From Polyangium spumosum (GTDB lineage: Bacteria > Myxococcota_A > Polyangia > Polyangiales > Polyangiaceae): a stretch of 47,044 bases of DNA. Shown in pieces: positions 3,127-44,947 of this stretch. A model generated the notes under the pieces. That model made no database searches. It was not told the origin of the DNA and saw nothing but the letters and a program-made list of their open reading frames with translations. The position numbers and the translations under genes are program-made. Numbering within the stretch: the stretch's first letter is position 1; each line of letters begins with the position of its first letter. The stretch lies in NCBI RefSeq assembly GCF_009649845.1, contig NZ_WJIE01000029.1, positions 1 through 47,044 of the forward strand, read 5' to 3'.

Positions 3127-3395
3127 TGCGGCACTTCACGGCGAAGTACAAGCGGGCGTGGCAAGCTCATCACATCTACGAGACGGCGAAGATGGAGAAG
3201 ATCGGCCTCGACGCCCTGGATGGGCCGTCGGTGATCCTCTCCAGCGAGCAGCACACGCTGATGACGAACAGGCTGCGCGAGGCTACGGGAAGGATTGACC
3301 CCACGAAGCTGAAGGAACTATGGGAGGCGTACAAGAAAGTCTACGAGCTGAACCCCCACTGGCTCAAGGCGATTGCTCACTACTTCGGGGAATGA
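3126..3395 (+). CDS. AHH/HNH-like nuclease-type C-terminal domain (frame 3 fragment)
   Basis: 89 aa from ATG 3126, which overlaps the stop of the upstream fragment as TGATG. The frame is open further upstream (a plausible join is ...YMIPT + RMEAGVVGPFRVMRHF). The sequence WQAHHIYE...VILSSEQHTLMTNRL has the double-His start, a central Ser/Asn stretch and a later His, typical of compact HNH/endonuclease VII toxin folds such as the AHH group used as C-terminal warheads of polymorphic toxins. No signal peptide exists in this frame alone, so as a separate protein it would stay in the cytoplasm. Followed 19 bp later by a double-CxxC protein that may be its antidote. Activity is inferred from motif pattern only. 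Confidence 0.5.
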   Translation: MRHFTAKYKRAWQAHHIYETAKMEKIGLDALDGPSVILSSEQHTLMTNRLREATGRIDPTKLKELWEAYKKVYELNPHWLKAIAHYFGE

Positions 3396-3414
3396 GCGCC
3401 TCAGCAGGACCACG

Positions 3415-4317
3415 ATGCAAACCAAAAGTAAAATCATATTCAACGCGCACGATATTCCGGGGCGAGAGCAGTCCATCCTTTCGGCGGCAGGCTGTGGCCC
3501 CGATGTGTCCGTCGTCAGCGACATCGAATTGTACGGCAAACGCTCGGTGACCGTATTTGTCACCCTCGACGTCGTGGACCCTCGCTTTGCACTGCTGCAA
3601 AAGCTCCTCCTTTCATACAAAGTCGACTGGCTGGATCAGCGCTGGGACGACTACACGGACGAGGAGTACGAGGCCGCACCCTTGATCGTCGTGCAGGCGC
3701 TGTCGGAGCACCACGTCGTCGGAGGCCCTCGCTTCCACACGGAGTACGATCTCTCGAAGGCCTGCCCGGCATGCGGCGCGGGGATGCGACAGACCGGCGC
3801 GTACACGATCGACGGCGCCGGCGCGACAGCCGTGGGGCTCGGCCAATCCCGCGTCGTGCACAGCTACAGCGAGCTCCTCGTCGACCAGCCGCTCGCGGAG
3901 ACGCTCGCCCGCGCGAACCTCTCCGGGCTCTCCTTCCGGAGCGTGTACGCGTATCAGCCGGACGAGGTACCCATGGAGCTGATCTGGAAGCAGTTATGGG
4001 CGCATTCCACGCTCCCCCCGATGTCGCCACGCTCGACCGGGGTCGACTTCGACAGCGCATGCAAGACCTGCAGGCGCGGTAAAATCGAGACGACGAGCCC
4101 CATGCGTATCGCCTACCGGACCCGGGACCTGGAAGGAGCCCAGGACGTCAACCGCATGTGGGAGCACTTCGGTTACGTCCGCTGGAACGGCGACCTGAAG
4201 ACGGCCGTCTTGTGGCAACCGTTCTTCGTCGTCTCCCCCAAGGTCTGGCGCATCTTCCGCGACGCAGGCGTGAGCGGCTTCCGTTGGCTGCCCATCCGCG
4301 TCGTCGACGACGAATGA
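3415..4317 (+). CDS. Double-CxxC protein, candidate immunity partner
   Basis: 300 aa, no signal peptide, no membrane segment; predicted cytoplasmic. Two cysteine knuckles are visible, CPACG near residue 122 and CKTC near residue 219, which probably bind one zinc. The layout recalls the Myxococcus double-CXXCG paralogous family (Gmx_para_CXXCG/SitI6), whose members pair with toxin lipoproteins, but the second knuckle lacks the Gly and the N-terminal part is not one I recognise. Start at ATG 3415, 19 bp after the upstream stop; the alternative ATG at 3373 would overlap the toxin-like gene. Base composition at 3415-3600 is noticeably more AT-rich than its neighbours, which fits horizontal movement of toxin-immunity pairs. 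Immunity role inferred from position. Confidence 0.6.
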   Translation: MQTKSKIIFNAHDIPGREQSILSAAGCGPDVSVVSDIELYGKRSVTVFVTLDVVDPRFALLQKLLLSYKVDWLDQRWDDYTDEEYEAAPLIVVQALSEHHVVGGPRFHTEYDLSKACPACGAGMRQTGAYTIDGAGATAVGLGQSRVVHSYSELLVDQPLAETLARANLSGLSFRSVYAYQPDEVPMELIWKQLWAHSTLPPMSPRSTGVDFDSACKTCRRGKIETTSPMRIAYRTRDLEGAQDVNRMWEHFGYVRWNGDLKTAVLWQPFFVVSPKVWRIFRDAGVSGFRWLPIRVVDDE

Positions 4318-4417
4318 AGGGCTGACAAGCCTGCCCACACGCGCGATGCTGCGCTCTCCTGAGCCGCTGTCACCCCGCATGTCATGCGAGGCGTCGGACC
4401 CACAGAGCTTCTCCCGA

Positions 4418-7400
4418 ATGATCGACATCCTCGGATACACGGCCTTCGAGCGGATCGAAGAGACCCCCTTCGTCAGCACCTTCCGCGCGCGGCGCGTCCA
4501 TGATGGTCTCCCGGTCGTCCTCCAGGTCCTCTCGGCCGAGGGCGCCCGGACAGCCGAGATCGCGCGCTTCAAGCACCAGTACGAGCGGCTCTCGCGGGTC
4601 GCCTCGCCGCGCCTCGTCGCGGTGCTCGGCGTCGAGGAGCGCCCAGGCTCCCTCGTCGTCGCGCGCGCGGATTTTCCCAGCCGCGACCTCGCGCGCGTGC
4701 TCGCCGCCCGCCCCGGCCGGAAGATGCCCGCGCACGAGGCCCTCGCCGTCGCCGCGGCGATCGCCGAAGCCCTCGCGGCGCTCCATCGGGCCGGCCTCGT
4801 CCACCGCGACCTGCGCCCGCAGAACGTCCTCGTCGGCGAGCGCGGCGCCGTCAAGGTCACGGGCTCGGGCGTCGACGCCGACGTCACGCGCGCCCACGAG
4901 CAGCTCTACGCGGAGGCCGTGCTCGAGGGCGTCCTGCCCTACGTCGCCCCCGAGCAGACCGGCCGCATGAACCGCGGCGTCGACCATCGGGCCGATCTCT
5001 ACGCGCTCGGCGTGATCCTCTACCAGGCCCTCACCGGTCGCCGCCCCTTCGAGGCCGCCGATCCGATGGAGCTCATCCACGCGCACCTCGCCCTCGCGCC
5101 CGAGCCGCCGTCTCGCCTCGATCCGACGGTCCCCGAGGCCGTGTCGCGGGTCGTCCTCGAGCTGCTCGAGAAAAACGCCGAGGACCGCTACCAGAGCGCC
5201 GAGGGCCTGCTCGCCGATCTCGAGCGATGCCGGAGGGGGCTCGAGAGCGCCGGGCGCGTCGAGCCGTTCACCCCGGCCCTCCTGGATCACGAGGGCGCGT
5301 TCCGGATCCACCAGAAGCTCTACGGGCGCGAGCGTGACATCGAGGCGCTCGTCTCGGCCTTCGATCGCGCGCAGCGGGGCGCGCGCGACATCGTCCTCGT
5401 CTCCGGCTACTCGGGCATCGGCAAGTCCTCGCTCGTGCAGGAGATCCTGAAGCCACTCGCGCGCGCGAAGGGCTACTACACGAGCGGCAAGTACGATCAG
5501 TACAACCGCGACACCCCGTACAGCGCGGTGATCCAGGCCTTCGACGGCCTCGTCCGGCAGATCCTCTCCGAGAGCAGCGCGCGGATCGAGGCCTGGAGGA
5601 GGTCGATCGTCGACGCGCTCGGGCAAAACGGGCAGGTCGTCTGCGACGTCATCCCCTCGCTCTCGCACGTGCTCGGCCCGCAGCCGCCCGTGCCCGCGCT
5701 CGGGCCCGTGGAGTCGCAGAACCGCCTGAACCGCTGCTTCTTGCGGTTCGTCTCGGTCTTCGCGCGGCGCGCCCACCCGCTCGTGCTCTTCCTCGACGAT
5801 CTGCAGTGGATCGACCCCGCGAGCCTCGGCCTGCTCCGCGAGCTGCTCGCCGACGAGGCGCTCGAGTCGCTCTTCTTCTGCGGCGCGTACCGCGACAACG
5901 AGGTCTCGCCCGCGCACCCGTTCATCATGGCCCTCGAGGAGCTGAAGCGCGGCGGCCTGACGGCGCGCGACATCGTCCTCGGCCCGCTCGAGCGGGAGCA
6001 CCTGCTCGACATGCTCCGCGACAGCCTGCGGCGCGACGACGCGGGCCCGCTCGCCGACGCCTTGCTCGAGAAGACCGGCGGAAACCCCTTCTTCGTCCGG
6101 CGCTTCCTCCAGTCGCTCCACGACCACGGCGTGCTCACGTACGCCGCGGGCGCGGGCTTCTCGTGGGATCTGCCGCAGATCGAGGAGCTCGCGTACACGG
6201 ACAACGTCGTCGACCTGATGGTGCGCACCATCGGGCGGCTGCCCGCGGCGACCCAGGAGATCCTCCGGTTCGCGGCCGCGATCGGCAATCGCTTCGACCT
6301 CGGCGTGCTCGCCACCGTGAGCGAATGCTCGAGCGAAGAGGCGTACGGACGCCTCGAGCCCGCCGTCGCCGAGGGCCTGCTGATCCCGAACCGCAGCGGC
6401 TACCGCTTCGCGCACGACAAGGTGCAGGAGGGCGCCTACGCGATGATCCCCGTCGAGGGGCGGCCCGCGTTCCACCTCCGCATCGGCCGGCTCCTCGCGG
6501 ACAAGGCGAACCTCGCGGACAGCCAGAACCTCTTCGACGTCGTCAGCCACCTCAACTGCGCGATCGACCTCATCGACGATCCCTACGAGCGCCTCGTCCT
6601 CGCCCGGATGAACCTCGACGCCGCCGCGCGGGCCGAGGAGTCGGCCGCGTTCGGCGCGGCGCGCAGCTACCTGGAGTCGGGCCTCGTCTGCCTGCCGGAC
6701 GACGCCTGGACCTCACACTATCGCCTGCGCCTCGCCTACGCGATGAAGACGGGCCTCATGCTCTCGCTCCTCGGGCAACACGACGACGCCCTCGTCGTGC
6801 TCGCCGACTGCCTCGAGCACGCCGAGGGCCGGCTCGATCGCACCGAGGTCTTGCGGCTCAAGATGAACGTGCAGATCCTCAAGAACGACCTGCCGGCCGC
6901 GCTCGCCGAGGGGCTCGCGGCGCTCGCGCCGTTCGGGATCGTTCTGCCGGCCTTCCCCGACGAAGCCACGCTCGACGCGCAGGTCCGCGTCACCATGGAC
7001 CTCGTCCGCGAGCGCTCGCTCGAGGCGCTGCCCGACCTGCCCACGCTCACCGATCCCGAGATCCGCGCGCTGCTCGACGTCCTCCAGGAGTTCTTCGCGC
7101 CCGGCTACTTTTTGAACACCAACAACTTCGTCATCTCGTTCGCCAAGATCCTGGAGCTCACCTACCAGCACGGCCTGTCGAAGAGCGCGATCTACGCCTG
7201 CGTCAACTTCGGGAGCTTCCTCTGCACCCGCGGGGACATCGAGCTCGGCTACCAGTTCGGCCGCGCCGCGGTGGACCTCATGGACAAGCTCGCGGACAAG
7301 AAGAGCGAGGCGATGCTCCACAACATGTGGGGCGGGTTCGTGCAGCACTGGCGCGAGGGCTACCCCGCCTACCGGGAGACGCTGGTCGCCGGGATGCACG

Positions 7401-9307
7401 CGGGGCTCGAGACCGGGCAGTACATCTGGTCGTTCTACAACACGGTCAACATCTCCACGAACAGCTTCCTCCGCGGCCTGCCGCTCGAGGAGGTCCTCGC
7501 CGAGGCGAAGAGCTTCGCCCCGATCCGGAAGCTCGACCGCTTCAACGCCATCACGTGGATGACCGGCGCGGTCGGGCAGATCGCGCAGAACCTCTCGACC
7601 GAGACCGAGCGGCCGGCGGAGCTCGTGGGGTCGTTCGTCGACATCAACGAGGTCATCGACGCGGCGCGCGGCATCGACAACCAGGCGTCCCTCTACTTCG
7701 CCAACCTCTACATCCTGCTGCTGCGCGTCTTCCAGGGCGCCTTCGAGGACGCGGCGCGCGTCGCGCTCCGGTCGAACCCCGAGATCGTGGGCGTCGCGAG
7801 CTGGCACGGGACGCCCGCCTTCCACTTCTACGGCGGGATCGCGCTCGCGAGGGCCTCGAGCCAGGTCGCGCCCGACGAGCGCCCGCTCTTGCTTGCACGC
7901 GCGGAGACCTACGCCGAGAAGGTCACGCGCTGGGCCGAGCTCTGCCCCGAGAGCTTCGCGCACCGGAGCGTCCTCCTGCGCGCCGAGCTCTCCCGCGCGC
8001 TCGGCAACGGCCGCGCCTCGGGCGACCTCTACGACCAGGCGATCGCGCTCGCGCAGCGCGGCCGCTTCGTGCAGGACGAGGCCCTCGCCAACGAGCTCTG
8101 CGCGCTGCACTGGCTCGACCTCGGCAAGACGACCATCGCGCGCGGCTACGTCGGCGAGGCCCACGAGCTCTACCTGCGCTGGGGCGCGACGGAGGCCGCG
8201 CGGCGCCTCTCGCGCGCGCACCCCGATCTCGTCCCGCGCGAGCCCCGCGGGGCCGCGCCGCTGCCCGGCGCCGCCGCGCCCGCGGCCGACGCGCTCGACA
8301 TCGGCTCGGTGCTCAAGGCGTCGCAGGCGATCTCGGGCGAGATCGTCCTCGGCCGCCTGCTCGAGGCGCTCATGCGTGTGGTGCTGGAGAACGCCGGCGC
8401 GCGTCGGGGCGTCCTGCTGCTCGTGCGGGACGACAAACTCGTGGTCGAGGCCGAGCACATCTTCGGGCAACCCACGCCGGCGCGGGCCGTGACGCCGCTC
8501 GAGAGACGCGAGGATCTGCCGGTCAGCGTGGTCTCCTACGTGGCGCGCACGCGCGAGCGGGTGCTGCTCGACGAGGGCGCCGCCGAGGGCCCGTTCGGCC
8601 GCGATCCGTACCTGGCCCGCGCGGCGCCGCGCTCGGCGCTCGCCGCGCCCATCTTCGGCAAGGGCCGGCTCGCGGGCGTGGTGTACCTGGAGAACGACCT
8701 CGCGCGGGGCGCCTTCACCCCGGCGCGGGTCGAGGTCGTGGGGCTCATCTGCACGCAGGCGGCGATCGCCATCGAGAACGCGCACCTCTACGCCGACCTC
8801 GAGCGCAAGGTCGAGGAGCGCACGGCCGCGCTGCGCCACGCGAACGAGGAGATCCTCGCGCTCAGCCTCGCCGATCAGGCGCGGAGGGAGCGCGAGGTGC
8901 TCGATCAGCAGGCCCTCATCCACCGGCAGGAGGAGGTCATCCAGGAGCTCTCCACGCCGATCATCGAGGTCTGGGACCGCGTGATCGCGGTCCCGCTCAC
9001 GGGCACGCTCGACGATCGTCGGGGCGAGGACATCATGGCGCGGCTGCTCCACCGGCTCGGCGGCTCGGCGTACCGCTGCGTGATCCTGGATCTGACCGGG
9101 GTCGAGGTCGTCGACACGGGCATGGCCGAGCGGATCGTGCGCATCGTGCAGGCGACGCGCCTGCTCGGCGCGAGCGTGATCATCAGCGGGATCCGGGCGG
9201 CCGTCGCGCAGACCATGATCCAGCTCGGCGCGGGCCTCGAGGGGTTGACGACGCGCTCGACGTTGCGGGAGGCGCTGCGCGGCTACATGCAGCAGCAGGG
9301 GAGATAG
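4418..9307 (+). CDS. Multidomain signalling protein: pseudokinase-AAA ATPase-TPR-GAF-STAS
   Basis: 1629 aa. Order: Ser/Thr-kinase fold (~1-290), predicted AAA/STAND ATPase (~300-580; Walker A GYSGIGKSS near 330, Walker B LFLDD near 457), long helical TPR-like region (~600-1280), GAF (~1297-1450), short coiled coil, RsbR-like STAS (~1509-1629). It belongs to the large kinase/ATP-binding group that usually ends in a histidine kinase; here the output is STAS. The kinase part keeps HRDLRPQN and APEQ, but the beta-3 Lys is Gln (VVLQVL), the DFG is TGSG and there is no Gly-loop, so it is probably catalytically dead. STAS keeps the two Thr positions phosphorylated in RsbR (VVDT, AQT). Start: ATG 4418 begins the MIDILGY pattern typical of the family; ATG 4379 and 4346 are also in frame. 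Confidence 0.88.
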   Translation: MIDILGYTAFERIEETPFVSTFRARRVHDGLPVVLQVLSAEGARTAEIARFKHQYERLSRVASPRLVAVLGVEERPGSLVVARADFPSRDLARVLAARPGRKMPAHEALAVAAAIAEALAALHRAGLVHRDLRPQNVLVGERGAVKVTGSGVDADVTRAHEQLYAEAVLEGVLPYVAPEQTGRMNRGVDHRADLYALGVILYQALTGRRPFEAADPMELIHAHLALAPEPPSRLDPTVPEAVSRVVLELLEKNAEDRYQSAEGLLADLERCRRGLESAGRVEPFTPALLDHEGAFRIHQKLYGRERDIEALVSAFDRAQRGARDIVLVSGYSGIGKSSLVQEILKPLARAKGYYTSGKYDQYNRDTPYSAVIQAFDGLVRQILSESSARIEAWRRSIVDALGQNGQVVCDVIPSLSHVLGPQPPVPALGPVESQNRLNRCFLRFVSVFARRAHPLVLFLDDLQWIDPASLGLLRELLADEALESLFFCGAYRDNEVSPAHPFIMALEELKRGGLTARDIVLGPLEREHLLDMLRDSLRRDDAGPLADALLEKTGGNPFFVRRFLQSLHDHGVLTYAAGAGFSWDLPQIEELAYTDNVVDLMVRTIGRLPAATQEILRFAAAIGNRFDLGVLATVSECSSEEAYGRLEPAVAEGLLIPNRSGYRFAHDKVQEGAYAMIPVEGRPAFHLRIGRLLADKANLADSQNLFDVVSHLNCAIDLIDDPYERLVLARMNLDAAARAEESAAFGAARSYLESGLVCLPDDAWTSHYRLRLAYAMKTGLMLSLLGQHDDALVVLADCLEHAEGRLDRTEVLRLKMNVQILKNDLPAALAEGLAALAPFGIVLPAFPDEATLDAQVRVTMDLVRERSLEALPDLPTLTDPEIRALLDVLQEFFAPGYFLNTNNFVISFAKILELTYQHGLSKSAIYACVNFGSFLCTRGDIELGYQFGRAAVDLMDKLADKKSEAMLHNMWGGFVQHWREGYPAYRETLVAGMHAGLETGQYIWSFYNTVNISTNSFLRGLPLEEVLAEAKSFAPIRKLDRFNAITWMTGAVGQIAQNLSTETERPAELVGSFVDINEVIDAARGIDNQASLYFANLYILLLRVFQGAFEDAARVALRSNPEIVGVASWHGTPAFHFYGGIALARASSQVAPDERPLLLARAETYAEKVTRWAELCPESFAHRSVLLRAELSRALGNGRASGDLYDQAIALAQRGRFVQDEALANELCALHWLDLGKTTIARGYVGEAHELYLRWGATEAARRLSRAHPDLVPREPRGAAPLPGAAAPAADALDIGSVLKASQAISGEIVLGRLLEALMRVVLENAGARRGVLLLVRDDKLVVEAEHIFGQPTPARAVTPLERREDLPVSVVSYVARTRERVLLDEGAAEGPFGRDPYLARAAPRSALAAPIFGKGRLAGVVYLENDLARGAFTPARVEVVGLICTQAAIAIENAHLYADLERKVEERTAALRHANEEILALSLADQARREREVLDQQALIHRQEEVIQELSTPIIEVWDRVIAVPLTGTLDDRRGEDIMARLLHRLGGSAYRCVILDLTGVEVVDTGMAERIVRIVQATRLLGASVIISGIRAAVAQTMIQLGAGLEGLTTRSTLREALRGYMQQQGR

Positions 9308-12948: not shown

Positions 12949-13071
12949 GGAGGTGAGCAGGAGCTTACGCCTGCAGGGGGGGCGAGCTCCATGATTTTTT
13001 TCGAGCCCAGAGCGGCAGCGGAGGTGCGGCGGAAGCGAAAGCGAAATCCAATCGTGTATTGCGTCCACCCG

Positions 13072-13086
13072 ACATGATAGTCATGT
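13072..13086. promoter_or_regulatory. Operator-like dyad between divergent genes
   Basis: ACATGA-TAG-TCATGT: two perfect 6-base arms with a 3-base centre, lying in the gap between the divergent cytochrome lipoprotein and P450 genes, 5 bp before the P450 ATG. The surrounding 30 bp are unusually AT-rich for this sequence. A bound regulator here would block P450 translation start or transcription. Regulator not known. Confidence 0.4.
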
Positions 13087-13091
13087 ATTCC

Positions 13092-14324
13092 ATGACGACG
13101 ACGGCACCTCGAGACCTGCGCTTCGACCCGATGGATCCCTCCTACGTGAAGGATCCTTACCCCCTCTTTGCCCGCTTCCGGAAGGAGGCCCCCGTCCTGC
13201 ACTGGGAGCTGGGTGGTGGCCCCATCTTTTTCCGCTATCGTGACGTCCTCGCGATCATGCGGGATCCCAGGCTCGGCAACGATCCCACCCTGGGCGCCGG
13301 ACTTCATGCCGACATGAAGGCCGCCTACCCCGATTTCGCGGCCCAGGTCGAGCACAGCCTGTTCTACGCCGAAGGGGCGTGGCACGCGCGGATCCGCAAG
13401 CTCGTCAACCCCGCCTTCGGCCCCCGCGCGATCGAGGCGCACCGCCCGAAGGTGAAGGCCATCATCGACGCGCTCCTCGACGAGCTCCCGCGCGAGGGCG
13501 AGATCAACGTCTCCGCGGACTTCAACCGGAAGTTCCCCGTGCAGGTGATCTCGAGCATCCTGAACATCCCTCCGCACCATCAAGGCGATTTCATCGCCTA
13601 TTCGGACGCCCTGATCGCCACGGCCCTCCCGGGGCTCCCGCCCGAGCTGTTCGCGTCGTACATGCCTGCCTTCTCGCGGGGCTGCGCGATCGTGCGCGAA
13701 TGCATCGCCGCGCGCAGGGCGGAGCCCATCGAGGACGATCTCCTGAGCCAGCTCGTCGCTGCCTGCGACGAGGGGGATCGGCTCAGCGACGCCGAGCTCG
13801 TCGCCCTCGTCGGCGCCCTCCTCGCCGGCGGCACGGACACCACGGTCCACGGCACGAACAATACGATGCTCTCGCTCCTCCGGAACCCGGCGCAGTACGC
13901 GCTCCTGCGCGAAAACCCCGGCCTCGCCCGGAGCGCATTCGAGGAGGCCCTGCGACTCGAAGGCATCCAGCGTGTTCCGCTCGTCCGCTACGCAAAGGAG
14001 CCTCTCTCGTTGGAGGGCATCCACATCGAGCGCGGCAAGCCGGTCTTCTTCGCGCTTTTGTCCGCGCTCCGCGACCCGGAGTACCTCGCGGACGCCGACG
14101 TGTACGACATCCGCCGCCAGGTCCCGGGCACGACCCTCTGGTTCGGTCATGGCGCGCATTTTTGCCTCGGCGCATCCCTCGCCCGCATGGAGGCCGAGAT
14201 CGCGCTGCAGGCCTTCTTCGAGCGGTATCCCAAGGTCGAGCTCGCCGGCGAGCCGGTCTACGGCTCCCAGCCCATCCTGCGCAACATCGACAACCTGCCG
14301 CTGCGCGTCAGCGCCTCCGCCTGA
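13092..14324 (+). CDS. Cytochrome P450 (bacterial class I type)
   Basis: 410 aa heme monooxygenase, cytoplasmic, needing ferredoxin and reductase from elsewhere. Motifs: I-helix oxygen-activation site LLAGGTDTT, ExxR in FEEALR, and the heme loop FGHGAHFCLGASLARME with the Cys thiolate ligand. Length is normal for CYP107/CYP109-like bacterial P450s. ATG 13092 gives the usual short N-terminus before RFDPMDPSYVKDPYPLF; ATG 13083 and a start at 13059 are also in frame. Preceded by an AT-rich divergent promoter region with a dyad; followed after 95 bp by a PAS-PAS-PAS-STAS protein on the same strand, possibly co-transcribed. No biosynthetic cluster adjoins, so the substrate cannot be guessed. Confidence 0.92.
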   Translation: MTTTAPRDLRFDPMDPSYVKDPYPLFARFRKEAPVLHWELGGGPIFFRYRDVLAIMRDPRLGNDPTLGAGLHADMKAAYPDFAAQVEHSLFYAEGAWHARIRKLVNPAFGPRAIEAHRPKVKAIIDALLDELPREGEINVSADFNRKFPVQVISSILNIPPHHQGDFIAYSDALIATALPGLPPELFASYMPAFSRGCAIVRECIAARRAEPIEDDLLSQLVAACDEGDRLSDAELVALVGALLAGGTDTTVHGTNNTMLSLLRNPAQYALLRENPGLARSAFEEALRLEGIQRVPLVRYAKEPLSLEGIHIERGKPVFFALLSALRDPEYLADADVYDIRRQVPGTTLWFGHGAHFCLGASLARMEAEIALQAFFERYPKVELAGEPVYGSQPILRNIDNLPLRVSASA

Positions 14325-14419: not shown

Positions 14420-16063
14420 GTGTCGGCTGTGAGTGATGATCCCAGCGTTGCTGAGAAAATAAATGATGGATCACACGAAGAGCTGCGCCGAAGGGTCGCG
14501 GAGCTCGAGCGTCGTGAGGTCGAGGCGCTCGCGAGGATTTCGCTCTACGAGCAGGTGCTCGACGCGCTCCCGGATCTCGTCGAGGTGAAGGACCACGAAC
14601 AGCGAATCGTCCACGTCAACCGGGCCTATCGAGAGCACCACGGGGCGCGGCTCGAAGAGCTCGTGGGCAAGACCGAGGCGGCCCTCGGGAGGCCCGACGC
14701 CCCGCTCCACGCAGAGCGAGATGCGCAGGTCCTGTCGGGCATCTTCGTCGACATCCCTTCGACGCCCGTCCCTCGCCGCGACGGCCGGGCGATGCCCTTT
14801 CACGTCGTCTGCGCGCCCCTCCGCGACGAGCAGAATCGAATCACGGGCATCGTCCAGAGCGCGCGCCCGATCCGCGGCGACGAAATGCAGGGCTCGGACC
14901 AGCAAACCGAGCGCGGCGAAGCCCACAACAGGGCGCTGCTCCGCGTCATCCCCGACATGTATTTCCTGCTCGACCGGGAGGGCACGTACGTCGATTTCTC
15001 CGCGGGGCGGGGCATGGATACCGCGCTGCCCCCCGCGCTCTTCCTGGGCAAACGCGTGAAGGACGTGACGCCCGATCTCGCGCAGTGGGCGATGGCCTGC
15101 GTGGACGAGGCGCTCCGCACGGGTGACCTCGTGCGGCACGAGTTCCGGCTCTTCGCGCAGGGGAAGTGGATCGATTACGAGGCGCGGGCGTTCGCGACGG
15201 GCCCCGAGCACACGCTCTTCATCGTGCGCGACATCTCGGCCGCGAAGTTGACCGAGCGGCAGCTCCGCGAAGCCGAGGCGCGCGACCGGGCCTTCGAAGA
15301 GCAATCGATGTTCGGCGTCTTCATGCTCCAGGGCAGCCGGCTCGTGTACGTCAACCCCAAGCTCGCCGAAATGCTGGGCCAGGAGCGGCGGGCGCTGCTC
15401 GGCGACGACGGGCTCACGTCGCTCGTCATGAAGGACGAGCGGGCCGATCTCGGCGCATTTCTGCGTTCCATCGAGCGGGCTGCCGAGGGATCCGAGGAGG
15501 CGCGGGGGCAGCTCGCCCTCCGGGCATGTCGCAAGGACGGCGCGCCCCTCTTCCTCGAGACCTTCGGCGCGCGCGTGACGTTCGGCGACGCCCCCGCGGT
15601 GATCGGCGTCGTGCTCGACGTCACCGCGCGACGTGAGGCCGAGGAGCAGCAGCGCCGCCTGCAGGACGAGCTCATTCGCATGCAGGAGATGATGGTCGTC
15701 GAGATGTCGACGCCGCTCATCCCGATCACCGACCAGATCGTGGTCATGCCGCTCATCGGCTCGCTCGACGACCGGCGCGCCGAGCAGGTGATGGGCCGCC
15801 TCCTCTCCGGCGTCTCCGGCTGTGGGGCGCGCGTCGTGATCATGGATATCACCGGCCTCTCCTCCGTCACCACGCAAACCGCGAGCGCGCTCGTCCGCTG
15901 CGCGCAGGCCGCGCGGCTCCTCGGAGCGACGGTGCTCCTCACGGGGATGCGCGCCGATGTGGCGCAGACGCTCGTGGAAATGGACGTTGATCTATCGGGG
16001 GTCGTGACGCTCGGGACGCTTAAGGCGGGGATCGCGCACGCCATGAGGCGAACCGGAGGATGA
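14420..16063 (+). CDS. PAS-PAS-PAS-STAS sensor protein (RsbR-like)
   Basis: 547 aa, cytoplasmic. A short coiled coil (~17-35) is followed by three PAS domains (~40-150, ~170-285, ~290-410), a helical linker, and a C-terminal STAS domain (~428-547). The linker/STAS junction (EMSTPLIPITDQIVVMPLIG) matches the other two STAS proteins in this window. STAS residues equivalent to the RsbR phospho-Thr sites are present (SSVTT and VAQT). In Bacillus such proteins form the stressosome with RsbS and RsbT; neither partner is here. GTG 14420 or GTG 14429 are both possible starts, each with a GAAGG-like site. 95 bp after the P450 gene; ends in a strong hairpin shared with the convergent gene. Confidence 0.87.
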   Translation: MSAVSDDPSVAEKINDGSHEELRRRVAELERREVEALARISLYEQVLDALPDLVEVKDHEQRIVHVNRAYREHHGARLEELVGKTEAALGRPDAPLHAERDAQVLSGIFVDIPSTPVPRRDGRAMPFHVVCAPLRDEQNRITGIVQSARPIRGDEMQGSDQQTERGEAHNRALLRVIPDMYFLLDREGTYVDFSAGRGMDTALPPALFLGKRVKDVTPDLAQWAMACVDEALRTGDLVRHEFRLFAQGKWIDYEARAFATGPEHTLFIVRDISAAKLTERQLREAEARDRAFEEQSMFGVFMLQGSRLVYVNPKLAEMLGQERRALLGDDGLTSLVMKDERADLGAFLRSIERAAEGSEEARGQLALRACRKDGAPLFLETFGARVTFGDAPAVIGVVLDVTARREAEEQQRRLQDELIRMQEMMVVEMSTPLIPITDQIVVMPLIGSLDDRRAEQVMGRLLSGVSGCGARVVIMDITGLSSVTTQTASALVRCAQAARLLGATVLLTGMRADVAQTLVEMDVDLSGVVTLGTLKAGIAHAMRRTGG

Positions 16064-23036: not shown

Positions 23037-24014
23037 ATGGCAGACGAACGAATGGCTGGTGGCGCCGACGGCGCCGACGTCGCCGCGCTGAAGGCGGAGA
23101 TCGCGGCGCTGCGAAAAGAAAACGCGGCGCTCAAGGCGCAGGTCATCGCGCTCGAGGGCGCGCTCGTCGATGGTCGGAACGAAGCGCCGCGGCCCATGGC
23201 CCCGACGATGCGCGCGGCCGTGATCGAGCGCGTCGAGCTCGAGCGAAGGCGGCTCTTGAACGCGGTCATCGACCATTCGCCGAGCATCGTTTTCGTGAAG
23301 GATCCCGACGGTCGATATCTCCTCGTGAACCGCCAGGCCGAACATCGCTACGGCAAGACACGAAACCAGCTGCTCGGCCGGACCGACGGCGAGTTTTTCC
23401 CGCCGGATGCCGTGCGGGTCATGCGGGAGAAGGACGCGGAGGCGGCTCGTCGCGGCGAGCCCATTCAATTCGACGAGACTCTCGAGTTCGACGGCGAGCC
23501 CCGCCATTTCCACACGATCAAGTTTCCGATCCTGAACAGCCACGGCGCGCTCATGGGTGTCTGTGGTATCGTGACGGATATCACCGATCAAAAGCGGCAG
23601 GAGGAGGAGCGCTTGCTCTTGCGCGAGCAGGTGATCGCCGCGCAGGAGGAGGCGCTCCGCGAGCTCTCCACGCCCCTCGTCCCGATCGCCGACGGCGTCG
23701 TCGCCATGCCGATCGTGGGCAGCGTCGACCAGGCGCGCGCCGAGCGGATCATGACCACGCTCCTCGACGGCATCGGCCACCACGGCGCGCACGCGGTGAT
23801 CCTCGACGTCACGGGCGTGCGCGCCGTGGACACGAACGTCGCGAGCGCGATCGTCTCGGCGGCCCGCGCGGTCAGGCTCCTCGGCGCGCGCGTGGTGGTG
23901 ACGGGCGTCCGGCCCGAGGTCGCGCGGACCTTGATCGAGACCGGCGTTGATCTCGAGGGGATCGTCATGCGGGGCAATTTGCAGAGCGGAATCGCCATTG
24001 CGATGCGCCGCTGA
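23037..24014 (+). CDS. PAS-STAS sensor protein (RsbR-like)
   Basis: 325 aa, cytoplasmic. An N-terminal coiled coil (~15-45, leucine/alanine heptads) is followed by one PAS domain (~75-190), a helical linker (QVIAAQEEALRELSTPLVPI) and a STAS domain (~205-325). The two RsbR-type Thr positions are kept (AVDT and VART). Shortest of three STAS-ended sensors in the window and likely a paralogue of the one at 14420-16063. Convergent with the second P450 gene, 9 bp between stops. No kinase or RsbS-like partner nearby, so partners must be encoded elsewhere. Confidence 0.87.
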   Translation: MADERMAGGADGADVAALKAEIAALRKENAALKAQVIALEGALVDGRNEAPRPMAPTMRAAVIERVELERRRLLNAVIDHSPSIVFVKDPDGRYLLVNRQAEHRYGKTRNQLLGRTDGEFFPPDAVRVMREKDAEAARRGEPIQFDETLEFDGEPRHFHTIKFPILNSHGALMGVCGIVTDITDQKRQEEERLLLREQVIAAQEEALRELSTPLVPIADGVVAMPIVGSVDQARAERIMTTLLDGIGHHGAHAVILDVTGVRAVDTNVASAIVSAARAVRLLGARVVVTGVRPEVARTLIETGVDLEGIVMRGNLQSGIAIAMRR

Positions 24015-24023
24015 GCGCGCTCG

Positions 24024-25229
24024 TCAAAACACGATCGGCAGCCGCTTCTTCGCGTGCAGGAGGAGCAACATCGAGCTCGGCTCGAGCTCCTCGCGCGGGA
24101 TCGCGAGGCGCATCCGCGGCAGGCGCCTGAGGAGCGTCTCCACGGCGATCGCCGCTTCCAGCCGCGCGAGCGGCGCGCCGAGGCAGAAATGGATCCCGTA
24201 GCCGAAGGCGATGTGTTTGTTCGGCTTGCGCCCGACGTCGAAGCGGTCGGGATCCGGGAATCGTGATTCGTCGTGATCGGCCGAGAGCAGCGAGGCCACG
24301 ACGAGCTCGTTTTTCCGGATGGTCACCCCGCCGAACTCCAGATCCTCGAGCGCGAAGCGGTACGTCGTCGTCTCCACCGGACCGCAGTATCGCAGCATCT
24401 CCTCCACCGCCGATTCGAGGAGCGAGGGATCCGAGGCGAGCCGCTCGTGCTGCTCGGGGTGGTCCATGAGCGCGAGCATGCCGTTCGTGATGAGGTTGAC
24501 CGTGGTCTCGTGGCCCGCCACGAGCAGGAGGAAGAGCATCCCCACGAGCTCCTGGGTGCTCAAACGATCTCCGCCCTCCTCGGCCGCCACGAGCCCGCTC
24601 ACGAGATCGTCCTGCGGCTCGGCCCTCCGGCGCTCGATGAGCTGCATGAAGTACTGGAAAAATGCAAAGCCGGTGGCGCGCAGGTGAGCGAGCTGCTCCT
24701 CGGTGTCCGCGGGCGTGAAGAGCACCGTGGTCCAGCGGCGGAAATCGTCCTGATCCGAGGCCGGCACGCCGAGCAGCTCGGCGATGACCGTGACGGGCAG
24801 GGGATACGAGAACTGGGAGACGAGGTCCATCCCGCTCGCGTCTCTCGCGAGGGCGGCCGAGACGAGGTCCTCTGCAATCGTGGCGATGCGGCCCCGGAGC
24901 CCCTCGACGATCTGCGGCGTGAAGGCCTTGGCCACGAGGGACCGGAGGCGCGTGTGGTCCGGCGGATCGGCGCTCAGCATGTGCTTTCCGAGCGCTTCGA
25001 ACTCGTCGGAGACGCGCAGGCGTTGCCGCTCCTCGGGGCTCCATTTCGTGAAATCCTTGCCGAAGCGAGGATCCCGCAGCATTTCGGAGCAATCGGCGTA
25101 CCGCGTGAGCAGCCGGAAAGGTATCTTGCGGTAGGGCTCGACGATCCGCGTGATGGGCTCTTCGGCCCGGAGGCGTCGGTAGATGGGGTGAGGGTCCTTG
25201 CGGCCCTCGCGCGTGAACAGGGGGTGCAT
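24024..25229 (-). CDS. Cytochrome P450 (second copy, different subfamily)
   Basis: 401 aa. I-helix motif LLVAGHETT, ExxR in VEEMLR, a PxxF-type region FPDPDRFDVGR, and heme loop FGYGIHFCLGAPLARLE. Resembles CYP107-like macrolide or fatty-acid hydroxylases; not a close paralogue of the P450 at 13092. Start at ATG 25229 is decided by a GGAGG 5 nt upstream; ATG 25241 lacks a site. Its ribosome site lies inside a degraded Cys-rich coding remnant read on the other strand (25242-25355). Convergent with the PAS-STAS gene. Needs external ferredoxin; substrate unknown. Confidence 0.92.
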   Translation of the reverse strand: MHPLFTREGRKDPHPIYRRLRAEEPITRIVEPYRKIPFRLLTRYADCSEMLRDPRFGKDFTKWSPEERQRLRVSDEFEALGKHMLSADPPDHTRLRSLVAKAFTPQIVEGLRGRIATIAEDLVSAALARDASGMDLVSQFSYPLPVTVIAELLGVPASDQDDFRRWTTVLFTPADTEEQLAHLRATGFAFFQYFMQLIERRRAEPQDDLVSGLVAAEEGGDRLSTQELVGMLFLLLVAGHETTVNLITNGMLALMDHPEQHERLASDPSLLESAVEEMLRYCGPVETTTYRFALEDLEFGGVTIRKNELVVASLLSADHDESRFPDPDRFDVGRKPNKHIAFGYGIHFCLGAPLARLEAAIAVETLLRRLPRMRLAIPREELEPSSMLLLLHAKKRLPIVF

Positions 25230-25241
25230 GGGCGCCTCCAT

Positions 25242-25355
25242 GATGCCTGCACCACGGACGCGTGCAACCCGCAAACGGGCTGTAGCACGAGCGTGTACAC
25301 GTCCGGGAGCTGGAACATCGACGATCTCCGCCTCGTCGCGGCGCTCTGCCTCTGA
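25242..25355 (+). pseudogene. Remnant of a Cys-rich repeat surface protein
   Basis: A 37-codon stretch reads DACTTDACNPQTGCSTS... and ends in ...WNIDDLRLVAALCL then TGA at 25353-25355. The DAC-x3-AC-NP-x-TGC pattern is the Cys-repeat common in large myxobacterial surface proteins. No start codon or upstream portion of such a protein remains: the frame to the left runs antisense through the P450. It looks like the 3' end of a lost gene. Not likely to be expressed as a protein. Confidence 0.5.
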
Positions 25356-41056: not shown

Positions 41057-44000
41057 TCAGATGACCGCGGCGCGCTTCACGAAGGCCTCGGCGAGCTCGC
41101 CCCAGGGCCGCTCGTAGACCACGTAGCCCTTCTTCGTGAGGGTGTGGACGAACGCGTCGTTCGAGGAGAACCCGTTCATCTGCGCCTCGACGAGGTGCGC
41201 CTCGAGCTCGGGGCCCGAGACCGGCATCGCGCCTTGTGTCTTCATCACGAAGAGCTGCCCCTCGCCCGGGCTCTGCAGGATCGTCGCGCCCTTCGAGCCA
41301 CCATTCAGCGCGGAGGCCACGTCCTCGCCCGTGAACCCACCGGCGCGCGACACGAGCTGCCCGAGCGATTGCCCCTCCGGCGCGGCGCCTTGCCCGAGGT
41401 TCAACTGCGGGCCGGCGAGCGCATTCGATCCGCCCGACCCATTCCCACCGCCGAGCGCATTCTGGAGCGCCTGCTTGGCTTGCCCGAGCGCGTCTCCTGC
41501 TTGCTCGCCGCTCGCGCCGACCGCGTCGCTCGTCGCCTCCGCGGCGTCCTTGCCCTTGCCCGTCAGCTCGCCCCAGAAGTCCTCGGCCTCGTCCTTGATG
41601 TCGCCCCAGGCCTCCTTCGTGTCGCCCTTGACGTCCTTCCAGGCCTCTTTTGCGTCCTTCCCGGCCTGCTTCAGCTCGTCCTTCGTCTGGTTCCAGGTCT
41701 CCTTCGCCTCGACCTTGGTCTGCTTCCAGGCCTCCTTGGCCTCCTCGACCGTCTGCTTGGCGTCCGCCTTCGTCTGGTCCCAGGTCTCCTTCGCCTCGGC
41801 CTTGGTCTGCTTCCAGGTCTCCTTCGCCTCTTCCCAGGTCTGCTTCGCTTCGGCCTTGGTCTGGTTCCAGCTCTCCTTCGCGTCGGTCTTGACCTCGTTC
41901 CACGCGGCCTTCGTCTCCGCGACGAACTCCTTCGGGATCGCCTTCACGTCGGCGATGAGATCCTTCGCGTCCGCGATGGTCTGCTTGACCGTCTCCTTCG
42001 CGCTCTCGATCTGGCCCTTCACCTCATCGACGACGGCCAACGCTCGCGCCTTGACCTCCTCGACCTTGGCCTTCGCCTGGGCCTTCCACTCCTCGACCTT
42101 GCCCTTCCACTCCTGGACCTTCTGCTTGACCTCTTCCTTGGCGCCCTCGATCCGCGCCTTGAGCTCCTGCACGCGCGCCTTCGCGGCCTCGACCTGCGTC
42201 TTGGCCTGCTCGATGATCTCGCCCGCCTGCTTCTTCATCTCCTGGAAGCGCTCGACGGCCTGATCCTTCAGCGCGATCACGCGCTCCTTGATCTCCTTCA
42301 CGCGGGCCTTGGCCTGCTCCTTGAGATCGTTGATGCGGCCCTTGATCTCCTCGATCTTGGCCTTGGCCTGCTCCTTCACGGCCTCGACGCGGCCCTTGAT
42401 CTCCTCGATCTTGGCCTCGACCCGCGCCTTCGCCTCGGCGAACTTCTCCTTCACCTCGGCGACCTTGCCGAGCACGGCCGCCTTCGCCGCTTCGAGCTTG
42501 CCCTTGAACTCCTCGACGATCGCCACGGCGCGCGCCTTGGCCTCCTCCAGCTTGCCGCGCAGCTCCTGGATCTTCGCCTGCACCTGCGCCTTCGCCGCCT
42601 CGAGCTTGGCCTTGACCTCCTCGAACTTGGCGATGGCCATCTGCTTCGCGGCTTCTGCCCGCGCGCGCAGATCCTCGACCGCGCCGCGGATCTTCTCCTG
42701 CACGTCCCCCACGACCTCGCCGGCCCGCGCGCGGATCTGATCGATACGCTCCTGCAGCTTCTTCTGCTCGAGCGCCACACGATCGAGGATGTCGTCGACG
42801 ATCGCGCCCGGCACGTCGAGCACCTTGTCGATCGCCGCCTGGATCTGCTCGTTGATGGCCTCGGGCATGATCAAATACCCCGGCGCGTCCGCGATCGACG
42901 CGGGTGGCTCCTCGAGCAAGCGCCGCAGCGCGCCCTCCACGGCCTCCTCGTCGAAGCCGCCCGGGATCTCGTCGAACACCTTCGCCGAGAGCGCCTTCGC
43001 CGCGTTGTTCACGGCCTCCGGGAACGCGAGATCCGCGAGGTTGATCTCGGCCGCGCCGAGCGACATCGGCACGGGCGAGCTCGCGCCCGCGGTGTTCAGA
43101 AGAACGTTCGGCGCGCCGTCGATGTGCACCTCGCGCCCCGCGAGCCCCGCGAGCCCTGCGGCGCTCACCTTGATGCTGCCGCTCGCGTCGAGGAAGATAT
43201 CGCCGCCCGCGATCGTGAGCGACGCCTTGCCCGTCGAGAGCACGACGCGATCCCGCGACAGCGAAGCGCCCGTCTCGCCGACCTGGATGTGGCACTCGCC
43301 GCCGACGACGAGCACGTCGCTCCCCTCCACGCGCGACGTGCGATTGCCGACGACGTGCAGCGCCTGATCCGCGCCCACCTTTCGGCTCTCGCGCTCGCCG
43401 ACCTGCACGTCGAGATCGGTGCCGACCTGGAGCGTGTGTTTCTCCCGGACGATCTCCTCGCGGTCCTTCTGCGCGTGCATGAACACCTTCTCGCGCCCCT
43501 TGGCGTCCTCGAAGGTGATCTCGTTCGAGCCGCCGGATCCTGGCGAGCTATCGCTCTTCCACGAGGTCTTCGTCTTGTGATCGGGCAGCTTGTACGGGTG
43601 CGGCGAGGTGCCGTTGAAGACGCGGCCGACGATGATCGGCTGGTCGGGGTCGCCCTCGAGGAAATCGACGAGCACCTCCTGCCCGACGCGCGGGATCGCG
43701 ACGTTTCCATACCCGCGCCCCGCCCAGACCTGGCTCACGCGCATCCAGCACGAGCTCTCGCCCTCGTACTTGCCCTCGCGATCCCAGTGGAACTGCACGC
43801 GCACGCGGCCGTACTCGTCGACGTGGATCTCCTCGCCGGGCGGGCCGACGACGACCGCGCTTTGCAGACCGCCCATGCGTGGCTTCGGCGTGACGGGCGC
43901 GGGCCTGTACGGATCGTCGGCGAACACGGCCATGCCCGTGCTCGACCAGTCGCCCTCGCTTGTCCCTTCGAGCGTCCGTTGCACGAGCAGCAGGCGCTTG

Positions 44001-44947
44001 TCCGGGGCGAGATCCTCGCGCGGATGCGCCTCCATGCAGAACACGTCGCCCGGCGAGAGGCCGAGCGCGGTCGTCTGGAAATGCACCTTGCGCCGCCCCT
44101 GCCGCATGCCGTCGAGCCTGCGCGCTGCGAGCGCCTTCGCCTCGCGCTCGTCGACGCGCCCGGGATCCACCACGAACGCGCCGGGCACGTAGCTGTAGCT
44201 CTCGTATCGATCTTCCATGTCGATCGTCGACTTGGCCTCGGCGATGAGCTGGAAGTCGGGCCGCCTGCGGAAATCGTGATCCCGCAAGGTCATGCGGCCC
44301 TGCCGCACCTGATGCGAGACCTTCACGTTCGTGATCGCGTCGCGTGACTTCGCGTGCTCGAGGTTGTTCACGTAGAGCAGCGGCGGGCCGGCTTCCCGCA
44401 CGGCGGGGTCGAGGACGAGCACGAGCTTGCTCGGCGTCTCGGTGCCCGGCTCCGGCGGCCGGAAGTGATAGCTGATGCCTGCCTCTTCGAGCAGCCGCGA
44501 GAGGAACGTGAAGTCGGTCTCGCCGTACTGCACGCGGTACTCGAGCCTCGGGAACGTGGCCGCGTCGAGCTCCATGACGGGCTCGATCTCCCAGTCCGCG
44601 AGCAACTTCTTCGTGATGTCGGGGATCGACAGGTGCTGGAAGATGCGCTGATTCCTGCGCTGCGAGGTGCGCCAGAGCGCCGGCACGATCCGCAGGAAGT
44701 ACGTCGAGAGCCCGTCCGGCTCGACCTCGATCTGCTCGGCGTACTGCACGACGCCGGTCCAGGCGAGGCCCCCCGCGACCTTGAACCCGGCGCCGTTCCC
44801 GACGAGGGCGTCGAGGTCGATGTCCTCCTCGGCCGAGCGAGCCACGAGTGAGACGTCGAAGAGCGTCGACATCTCCTCGACGACCGAGAAGCTCCGCACG
44901 GAGAGGTTGATGTCCTTCGCGGCGAACCGAAGCTCTAGGTTTTCCAT
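41057..44947 (-). CDS. VgrG spike protein with ~400-aa helical stalk
   Basis: 1296 aa, about twice the usual ~600-700. Residues 1-350 are the gp27-like base; gp5/OB-fold (~355-445) with DEYGRVRVQFHWDREG, WMRVSQVWAG, PRVGQEVLVDFLEGDPDQP and IIVGRVFNG; a beta-spike (~490-565, xVGxx-type repeats). Beyond ~690 it turns into a long Ala/Lys/Glu helical region (~720-1130), with no Pro for most of its length, ending in four 29-residue units (1015-1130; see repeat entry). Then a Gly/Asn linker and an unrecognised ~130-residue C-terminal domain. Normal VgrGs either end at the spike or carry an enzyme. The stalk may reach out, span the envelope, or bind cargo. The antisense Leu-rich frame over this region is a shadow. 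Confidence 0.9.
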   Translation of the reverse strand: MENLELRFAAKDINLSVRSFSVVEEMSTLFDVSLVARSAEEDIDLDALVGNGAGFKVAGGLAWTGVVQYAEQIEVEPDGLSTYFLRIVPALWRTSQRRNQRIFQHLSIPDITKKLLADWEIEPVMELDAATFPRLEYRVQYGETDFTFLSRLLEEAGISYHFRPPEPGTETPSKLVLVLDPAVREAGPPLLYVNNLEHAKSRDAITNVKVSHQVRQGRMTLRDHDFRRRPDFQLIAEAKSTIDMEDRYESYSYVPGAFVVDPGRVDEREAKALAARRLDGMRQGRRKVHFQTTALGLSPGDVFCMEAHPREDLAPDKRLLLVQRTLEGTSEGDWSSTGMAVFADDPYRPAPVTPKPRMGGLQSAVVVGPPGEEIHVDEYGRVRVQFHWDREGKYEGESSCWMRVSQVWAGRGYGNVAIPRVGQEVLVDFLEGDPDQPIIVGRVFNGTSPHPYKLPDHKTKTSWKSDSSPGSGGSNEITFEDAKGREKVFMHAQKDREEIVREKHTLQVGTDLDVQVGERESRKVGADQALHVVGNRTSRVEGSDVLVVGGECHIQVGETGASLSRDRVVLSTGKASLTIAGGDIFLDASGSIKVSAAGLAGLAGREVHIDGAPNVLLNTAGASSPVPMSLGAAEINLADLAFPEAVNNAAKALSAKVFDEIPGGFDEEAVEGALRRLLEEPPASIADAPGYLIMPEAINEQIQAAIDKVLDVPGAIVDDILDRVALEQKKLQERIDQIRARAGEVVGDVQEKIRGAVEDLRARAEAAKQMAIAKFEEVKAKLEAAKAQVQAKIQELRGKLEEAKARAVAIVEEFKGKLEAAKAAVLGKVAEVKEKFAEAKARVEAKIEEIKGRVEAVKEQAKAKIEEIKGRINDLKEQAKARVKEIKERVIALKDQAVERFQEMKKQAGEIIEQAKTQVEAAKARVQELKARIEGAKEEVKQKVQEWKGKVEEWKAQAKAKVEEVKARALAVVDEVKGQIESAKETVKQTIADAKDLIADVKAIPKEFVAETKAAWNEVKTDAKESWNQTKAEAKQTWEEAKETWKQTKAEAKETWDQTKADAKQTVEEAKEAWKQTKVEAKETWNQTKDELKQAGKDAKEAWKDVKGDTKEAWGDIKDEAEDFWGELTGKGKDAAEATSDAVGASGEQAGDALGQAKQALQNALGGGNGSGGSNALAGPQLNLGQGAAPEGQSLGQLVSRAGGFTGEDVASALNGGSKGATILQSPGEGQLFVMKTQGAMPVSGPELEAHLVEAQMNGFSSNDAFVHTLTKKGYVVYERPWGELAEAFVKRAAVI
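41558..41905 (-). repeat. Four 87-bp units encoding 29-residue Trp-ladder repeats
   Basis: Residues 1015-1130 of the VgrG protein split exactly into four units of 29 residues, each 11+11+7. Segments start with xW or close to it: AWNEVKTDAKE, SWNQTKAEAKQ, TWEEAKE, and so on. Ten of twelve segments carry Trp at the second position; the two others have Val and Gly in heptads TVEEAKE and AGKDAKE. 29 residues per 8 helical turns means all Trp lie along nearly one face. The DNA units are diverged but the period is exact (348 bp). Confidence 0.85.

What the first reader, a model, noticed from the sequence alone, without database searches (positions are those of the whole stretch)
4418..9307. Dead kinase domain on a giant STAS-ended sensor
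Beta-3 Lys replaced by Gln (VVLQVL), DFG replaced by GSG, no Gly-loop, yet HRD and APE kept. The protein class normally ends in a histidine kinase; here it ends in a STAS domain with the RsbR Thr sites. So both catalytic outputs are gone, leaving ATPase-TPR-GAF sensing into a stressosome-like partner switch.
Basis: partly seen in the sequence, partly recalled or inferred. Interest (0 to 1): 0.5.

Follow-up and report, generated by a model that had tools for sequence, protein, structure and literature searches.

The report
Dead-kinase sensor with RsbR-type tail
A giant Polyangium sensor protein keeps the shape of a protein kinase but not its key catalytic residues, and ends in a stressosome-type domain instead of the usual histidine kinase; it belongs to a large mix-and-match family in this bacterial group, so it is a neat variant rather than a one-off.

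Summary
The gene (4346 or 4418 to 9307, +) encodes kinase fold, AAA_16 ATPase, helical region, GAF, STAS. Beta-3 Lys is Gln60 and DFG is GSG; HRD and APE are kept. Lys is not displaced, but an acid four residues after the DFG position (Asp177) marks the whole clade: 51 of 51 close homologues, 0 of 53 intact kinases. Of two classical RsbR phosphosites only the T205 equivalent (T1591) is Thr; the T171 equivalent is Asp1557. Beta-3 Lys loss is commoner in STAS-ended proteins (20 of 47, HK-ended 3 of 71), but a tree-corrected test is not significant. In this genome 9 of 15 paralogues end in STAS, 4 of them with intact kinase residues. Outputs swap just after GAF (about residue 1490-1500). A stressosome link is plausible, untested: 75 RsbR-type STAS domains against one clear RsbS and one rsbT operon, on another contig. 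STAS fused to such kinases was already noted for Sorangium (PMC2887360). New variant of a known kind.

The parts
4346..9307 (+). whole gene, 1653 aa (1629 aa if it starts at the Met codon at 4418)
   Evidence: Met25 aligns with a Met of L031
4427..5230 (+). protein-kinase fold, degenerate (residues about 28-295)
   Evidence: Pfam Pkinase; AlphaFold model mean pLDDT 87.8; best solved folds PknB kinase structures
4523..4525 (+). Gln60 at the beta-3 Lys position
   Evidence: Gln also in 5 orthologues L079, L084, L085, L086, L087
4802..4825 (+). HRDLRPQN catalytic loop, Asp155 and Asn160 kept
4862..4870 (+). GSG (173-175) in place of DFG
   Evidence: GSG in 4 of 5 orthologues, GFG in L086
4874..4876 (+). 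Asp177, clade-wide acid four residues after the DFG-Asp position
   Evidence: D 49 and E 2 of 51 close homologues; A 42 and S 11 of 53 intact kinases
5315..5872 (+). AAA_16 ATPase domain; Walker A (354-361) and Walker B (480-485) intact
   Evidence: invariant columns
6503..8305 (+). region of about 600 aa, TPR-like at best
   Evidence: TPR_CHK1 hint at E 0.05 only
8354..8773 (+). GAF domain (1337-1476)
8783..8950 (+). linker of RsbR type before the STAS domain
8813..8845 (+). output-swap junction (about residues 1490-1500): 65-68% identity to HK-ended L031 and L083 over GAF, background after it
8960..9274 (+). RsbR-type STAS domain (1539-1643)
   Evidence: best solved relatives 7o0i_B (E 1.7e-26) and 6qcm RsbR (2e-21)
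9014..9016 (+). Asp1557 at the RsbR T171/T175 position
9116..9118 (+). Thr1591 at the RsbR T205/T209 position
9212..9214 (+). Thr1623 at the RsbR T237/T241 position

Best explanation
It is a sensor of the kinase-AAA-GAF family (the family of the cyanobacterial dual kinases such as HstK) in which the kinase is a conserved pseudokinase and the output is an RsbR-type STAS domain in place of a histidine kinase. Likely working: the pseudokinase binds a regulator or its neighbour domains and sets the state of the ATP-dependent AAA module; ligand binding at GAF and/or nucleotide state moves the linker; the STAS domain sits as one of many RsbR subunits in complexes built on the single RsbS, and controls when RsbT phosphorylates RsbS and leaves. 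Shown: residues lost, the same loss in orthologues, the intact ATPase motifs, the STAS kind, the swap junction, one RsbS/RsbT module elsewhere in the genome. Inferred: every interaction, the location in the cell and the direction of signalling.
For: Lys and DFG-Asp both gone. The fold is kept (pLDDT 87.8; Foldseek best hits PknB). The K-to-Q state is shared by the 5 orthologues found, one in each of 5 other genomes of the genus. Between the window and orthologue L079 the kinase has dN/dS 0.37, like the other domains at 0.23-0.44, so it is kept, not decaying. Walker motifs lie in invariant or nearly invariant family columns. STAS matches solved RsbR-type chains at 1.7e-26 to 2e-21, RsbS at 2e-13. 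Output swap: to HK-ended L083 71% kinase, 78% AAA, 65% middle region, 68% GAF, then 26% and 25%; to STAS-ended L079 71, 78, 66, 73, 65, 70%. 75 RsbR-type STAS against one clear RsbS and one RsbT (plus a paralogue in the same operon) in the genome. RsbT-like genes in 12 of 12 other genomes with close relatives (E up to 1e-8).
Against: No rsbS or rsbT was found on the window's contig (C29 matches are RsbR-type; none). The T171-type site is Asp here and Ala in 4 orthologues. Many STAS-ended relatives lack phosphosites: the T205 position is Ser/Thr in only 18 of 47, so phosphorylation may not be the general way of working. The clade-wide acid at DFG+4 could mean that metal or nucleotide binding is kept in another way. 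57 HATPase_c_2 matches in the genome were not sorted, so other RsbT- or RsbW-like partners are possible. No interaction is tested.
Confidence: 0.58

Rival explanations
1. The kinase still works in an unusual way: Asp177 (DFG+4) takes over for the lost DFG-Asp, or transfer is metal-independent (as recalled for CASK, which has GFG), or the fold does another chemistry.
For: HRD Asp, Asn and APE are kept; 29 of 29 HK-ended close relatives keep beta-3 Lys; 51 of 51 close homologues have D or E at DFG+4 against 0 of 53 intact kinases; the 5 orthologues have Lys44 in the beta-2 strand where the window has Ser (by recall this resembles the displaced Lys of WNK kinases). PMC8141879 cites pseudokinases with other chemistry and a compensating Lys in ULK4 (passages). 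I raised this rival from 0.12 to 0.15.
Against: The window protein has neither beta-3 Lys nor Lys44, and its orthologues lack DFG-Asp as well; 2 relatives with Lys44 (L090, L093) also keep the beta-3 Lys, so Lys44 is no clear substitute. The 51 are one clade, so the acid may be a single inherited change.
Confidence: 0.15
2. The STAS domain does not work in the RsbST stressosome but in another partner switch (a different HATPase anti-sigma-like kinase) or as a plain dimer or scaffold domain.
For: No genetic link to rsbST; phosphosites missing in most STAS-ended relatives (18 of 47 keep Ser/Thr at the T205 site); 57 unsorted HATPase_c_2 matches.
Against: Solved relatives are RsbR-type; the RsbT search of the genome finds only the operon pair and one weak match, E 1e-4, on the same contig; 75 RsbR-type domains for one core.
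Confidence: 0.22
3. The gene is a decaying duplicate; the lost residues are simply decay.
For: One orthologue (L086, G086) leaves the frame inside the GAF domain, so that copy has no STAS in frame; against L087 its kinase has dN/dS 0.98. Degenerate kinases are common in this group.
Against: dN/dS 0.37 (window against L079) in the kinase; reading frame intact in the window and 4 of 5 orthologues; the same Gln in all 6.
Confidence: 0.05

Closest known systems
Cyanobacterial dual kinases cbSTKIII / HstK (PMC2176072, passages; Phalip 2001 seen only in its reference list)
   Same: N-terminal kinase fold and GAF in one long protein; the AAA region is 41-48% identical to the cyanobacterial relatives among the 80 loci
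   Different: no HisKA or HATPase; degenerate kinase, whereas 68 of 71 relatives from outside Polyangia keep K/D/N/D
RsbR of the stressosome (6qcm, called LmRsbR in PMC9237128; 7b0u; 7o0i is listed as anti-anti-sigma factor, by recall a Vibrio stressosome)
   Same: C-terminal STAS after a linker; T205- and T237-type Thr kept
   Different: T171-type site is Asp; about 1500 residues of kinase-AAA-middle-GAF in front instead of a small sensor; no rsbST neighbours found
Sorangium STAS proteins fused to eukaryotic-like kinases (PMC2887360, passages read)
   Same: [quoted passage not shown] 71 COG1366 proteins counted in one genome
   Different: the passages seen give no architecture, residue loss or output swap
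TOMM system kinase/cyclase (TIGR03903)
   Same: best-matched stretch covers the AAA region 324-776 (159 bits)
   Different: far below its cut-off of 706 bits; by its name a cyclase output instead of STAS

Membership tests
RsbR | C-terminal STAS of RsbR type | tested here: met
RsbR | both RsbT-phosphorylated Thr (T171 and T205) | tested here: not met
   D1557 and T1591; Ala and Ser in 4 orthologues
RsbR | gene next to rsbS and rsbT | tested here: not met
   module is on contig C11; no RsbS- or RsbT-like match on C29
RsbR | assembles with RsbS and RsbT | not testable with these tools
   needs protein work
cyanobacterial dual kinase (cbSTKIII / HstK) | kinase fold, AAA and GAF in this order | tested here: met
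   for the window; kinase and AAA in the relatives (GAF not scanned there)
cyanobacterial dual kinase (cbSTKIII / HstK) | C-terminal histidine kinase | tested here: not met
   STAS instead
cyanobacterial dual kinase (cbSTKIII / HstK) | intact Ser/Thr kinase residues | tested here: not met
   Gln60, GSG
pseudokinase | kinase fold lacking at least one of beta-3 Lys, HRD Asp, DFG Asp | tested here: met
   two of three lost; fold kept
pseudokinase | no phosphotransfer | not testable with these tools
   needs assay; the acid at DFG+4 keeps this open

The most novel reading that the evidence does not exclude
Polyangium runs a hub-and-spoke stressosome: some 75 different RsbR-type sensors, among them nine kinase-AAA-GAF giants (several with dead kinases), compete for one RsbS/RsbT core, and the family trades histidine-kinase outputs for stressosome outputs at a fixed joint after GAF, so that the same sensor body can be plugged into either network. 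The clade's kinases have moved the DFG acid four residues downstream, giving a re-built nucleotide switch rather than a wreck.
Probability: 0.25. Interest if true: 0.65.

Novelty: new variant of a known kind. Interest (0 to 1): 0.4.

Why it matters
It offers a natural set of closely similar sensor bodies (71-78% identical kinase and AAA) that end in either a histidine kinase or a stressosome domain. This makes it possible to ask what a bacterial pseudokinase does in a signalling protein, and how one RsbS/RsbT core could read dozens of sensors.

Tried and rejected
Rejected: a displaced catalytic Lys in this protein (residue 44 is Ser here, Lys in the 5 orthologues). Not rejected: a displaced acid (Asp177). 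Rejected: that loss of the histidine kinase explains the dead kinase (DFG-Asp also lost in 29 HK-ended kin). Weak: that beta-3 Lys loss follows the STAS output. Rows say 20 of 47 against 3 of 71 (gaps count as loss, 4 of the 20 and 1 of the 3), and 18 of 40 against 3 of 64 without near-copies, but of 5 independent pairs on well-supported branches 2.2 on average go that way, 0 the other way, not significant; the first, smaller tree gave 3.3 of 5, also not significant.

Rows dropped before counts. L044, L045 (distant kinase-AAA proteins of another kind) and L103 (kinase not in the frame). One search also L132-L136 (same genes as fetched G loci) and rows shorter than 250 aa. (and 77): L044, L045 and five near-copies (L100, L113, L123, L124, L126); of the 80 named loci I used 17. 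One search used 5 named Polyangia loci (6 proteins) and 4 cyanobacterial ones; 14 near-copies dropped from 133, 119 rows in the tree, 104 with output STAS or HK counted; 80 hits, 76 after removing repeats of one domain.

Not resolved: whether STAS or HK is older in this clade, and where the window's STAS came from; the STAS tree has weak inner branches. Literature: 10 searches that ran listed no paper on this architecture with a dead kinase; the one relevant remark is in PMC2887360. Absence is only for those terms in this open-licence library. Papers were seen as passages or as listings, none as whole texts.

Output classes were called with profiles built from these proteins and, for cyclase, GGDEF, PP2C and HWE kinases, with motif patterns from recall, so 'unknown' rows remain (14 of 71 non-Polyangia rows, 11; some frames run off a contig). 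Nannocystis L137 is the only STAS-ended protein among the 80 named loci. The second structure job was not used, and the model's coordinates could not be read, so distances in the active site were not measured.

Full report
What is there. Codon-position GC of 0.73/0.45/0.96 marks it as coding. Pfam gives kinase, AAA_16, GAF and STAS, in this order; the 600 aa between AAA and GAF are TPR-like at best (TPR_CHK1 E 0.05).

Kinase. Against PknB and 14 paralogues, Gln60 stands at beta-3 Lys and GSG 173-175 at DFG; HRD Asp155, Asn160 and APE Glu203 remain. The AlphaFold model (46-row alignment) has mean pLDDT 87.8 and its best solved matches are PknB structures. A poor Gly-loop is a family trait.

Family. 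K/D/N/D are intact in 4 of 9 STAS-ended (L034, L035, L036, L039) and 4 of 6 HK-ended ones. In the taxonomic family 13 of 108 genomes, the window's own included, hold close relatives at E below 1e-130. I fetched 50 of the 51 such loci outside the window's genome (one G085 hit with the same score as another was left out). With the window protein and L031, 51 have a readable kinase (L103 does not): 29 HK-ended, 19 STAS-ended, 3 unclear. None of the 51 has the DFG Asp; all 29 HK-ended ones keep the beta-3 Lys. Outside Polyangia, among 71 further relatives, mostly cyanobacterial, 68 keep all four residues; called outputs are histidine kinase 41, cyclase 11, PP2C 3, GGDEF 2, unclear 14.

A moved acid. 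In all 51 an acid stands four residues after the DFG-Asp position (Asp177 here; D 49, E 2). In the 53 intact kinases of the same alignment it is Ala 42 or Ser 11; among 29 other degenerate ones D or E in 3. The clade is one lineage, so this may be a single change, but it is kept down to 58% AAA identity. It may replace the lost metal ligand or be structural; not tested. Lys44 in the 5 orthologues (Ser in the window) lies in the beta-2 strand, near where WNK kinases have theirs (recall); L090 and L093 also have it, together with the normal Lys.

Swap. Window against HK-ended L083: kinase 71%, AAA 78%, middle 65%, GAF 68%, then 26% and 25%. Against STAS-ended L079: 71, 78, 66, 73, 65, 70%. Identity falls at about residue 1490-1500. 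A tree of the AAA region needs 7 changes of the STAS label in 78 rows (6 forced by well-supported branches, 6 without rows of unknown output) and 8 STAS/HK changes in 104 rows. The window and its orthologues form one group (SH-aLRT 99) inside a 28-row group with 20 HK-ended rows.

Lys loss and output. With 59 more proteins from three genomes the counts are: beta-3 Lys lost in 20 of 47 STAS-ended and 3 of 71 HK-ended; HRD Asp lost in 12 of 47 and 4 of 71; DFG Asp lost in 31 of 47 and 39 of 71; 11 of unclear output, 5 of them without Lys. Corrected for ancestry the Lys trend is not significant, and neither HRD nor DFG loss shows a link.

STAS. Best solved relatives are RsbR-type chains. By that alignment the Listeria 175, 209 and 241 positions are Asp1557, Thr1591 and Thr1623; PMC9237128 (passages) names Thr175 and Thr209 as the conserved sites and equates T209 and T241 with B. 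subtilis T205 and T237; T175 = T171 is recalled. Orthologues L079, L084, L085 and L087 have Ala, Ser, Thr. In the genome I aligned 76 STAS domains: 75 RsbR-type and 1 RsbS. Among the 75 the T205 position is Ser/Thr in 29 and the T237 position Thr in 55.

Core. An operon-like run on contig C11 (L127) encodes a PAS-STAS RsbR, an RsbS with DSY, an RsbT-like HATPase, a SpoIIE-type phosphatase and a second HATPase. RsbS has one clear copy; RsbT has one copy plus the operon paralogue, with one further weak match at E 1e-4 on the same contig. RsbT-like genes occur in 12 of 12 other genomes with close relatives (E up to 1e-8). A class sample gave 5 of 144 at E 1e-40, the window's own genome included; at that cut-off 11 of the 12 would pass (G104 has 1.4e-40). 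The contrast is rough, because the 12 are close kin with large genomes.

Selection. Window against L079 the kinase has dN/dS 0.37 and other domains 0.23-0.44; among the intact close orthologues the kinase values range 0.14-0.60, and 0.98 for L086 against L087, on few changes. The dead kinase is kept.

Literature. PMC2887360 (passages) reports 71 COG1366 proteins in Sorangium cellulosum and that they can be found fused to eukaryotic-like kinases, so the fusion is known. The architecture, the dead-kinase clade and the swap were not found in the 10 searches that ran.

Verdict. A real, conserved pseudokinase sensor with RsbR-type output; a member of a modular family that is expanded here. The link to the single RsbS/RsbT core and the moved acid are the interesting, untested parts.

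Noticed in passing
window 14420-16063 (+) and 23037-24014 (+): Two further RsbR-type PAS-STAS proteins on the same 47-kb contig, with no RsbT match there.
   Followed up: partly
L086 (G086), GAF region: Orthologue of the window gene whose frame breaks inside GAF, so STAS is not in frame; real or assembly error unknown.
   Followed up: no
L321 (G067): Family member whose last 60 residues look, by eye, like the end of a second protein kinase domain.
   Followed up: no
G067, 14 family members at E below 1e-45: Of the 14 family members of this 16-Mb genome 13 are HK-ended, 1 unclear and none found STAS-ended, although it has 8 RsbT-like matches.
   Followed up: no
window 13059-14324 (+) and 24024-25274 (-): Two cytochrome P450 genes, each next to a PAS-STAS gene.
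   Followed up: no
window 41057-44947 (-): VgrG-like baseplate protein (Phage_GPD, Gp5_trimer_C) with an apolipoprotein-like stretch below cut-off in its tail.
   Followed up: no
window 3373-4317 (+): Gene just upstream, with two CxxC pairs and no match in Pfam or NCBIfam at E 0.001.
   Followed up: no
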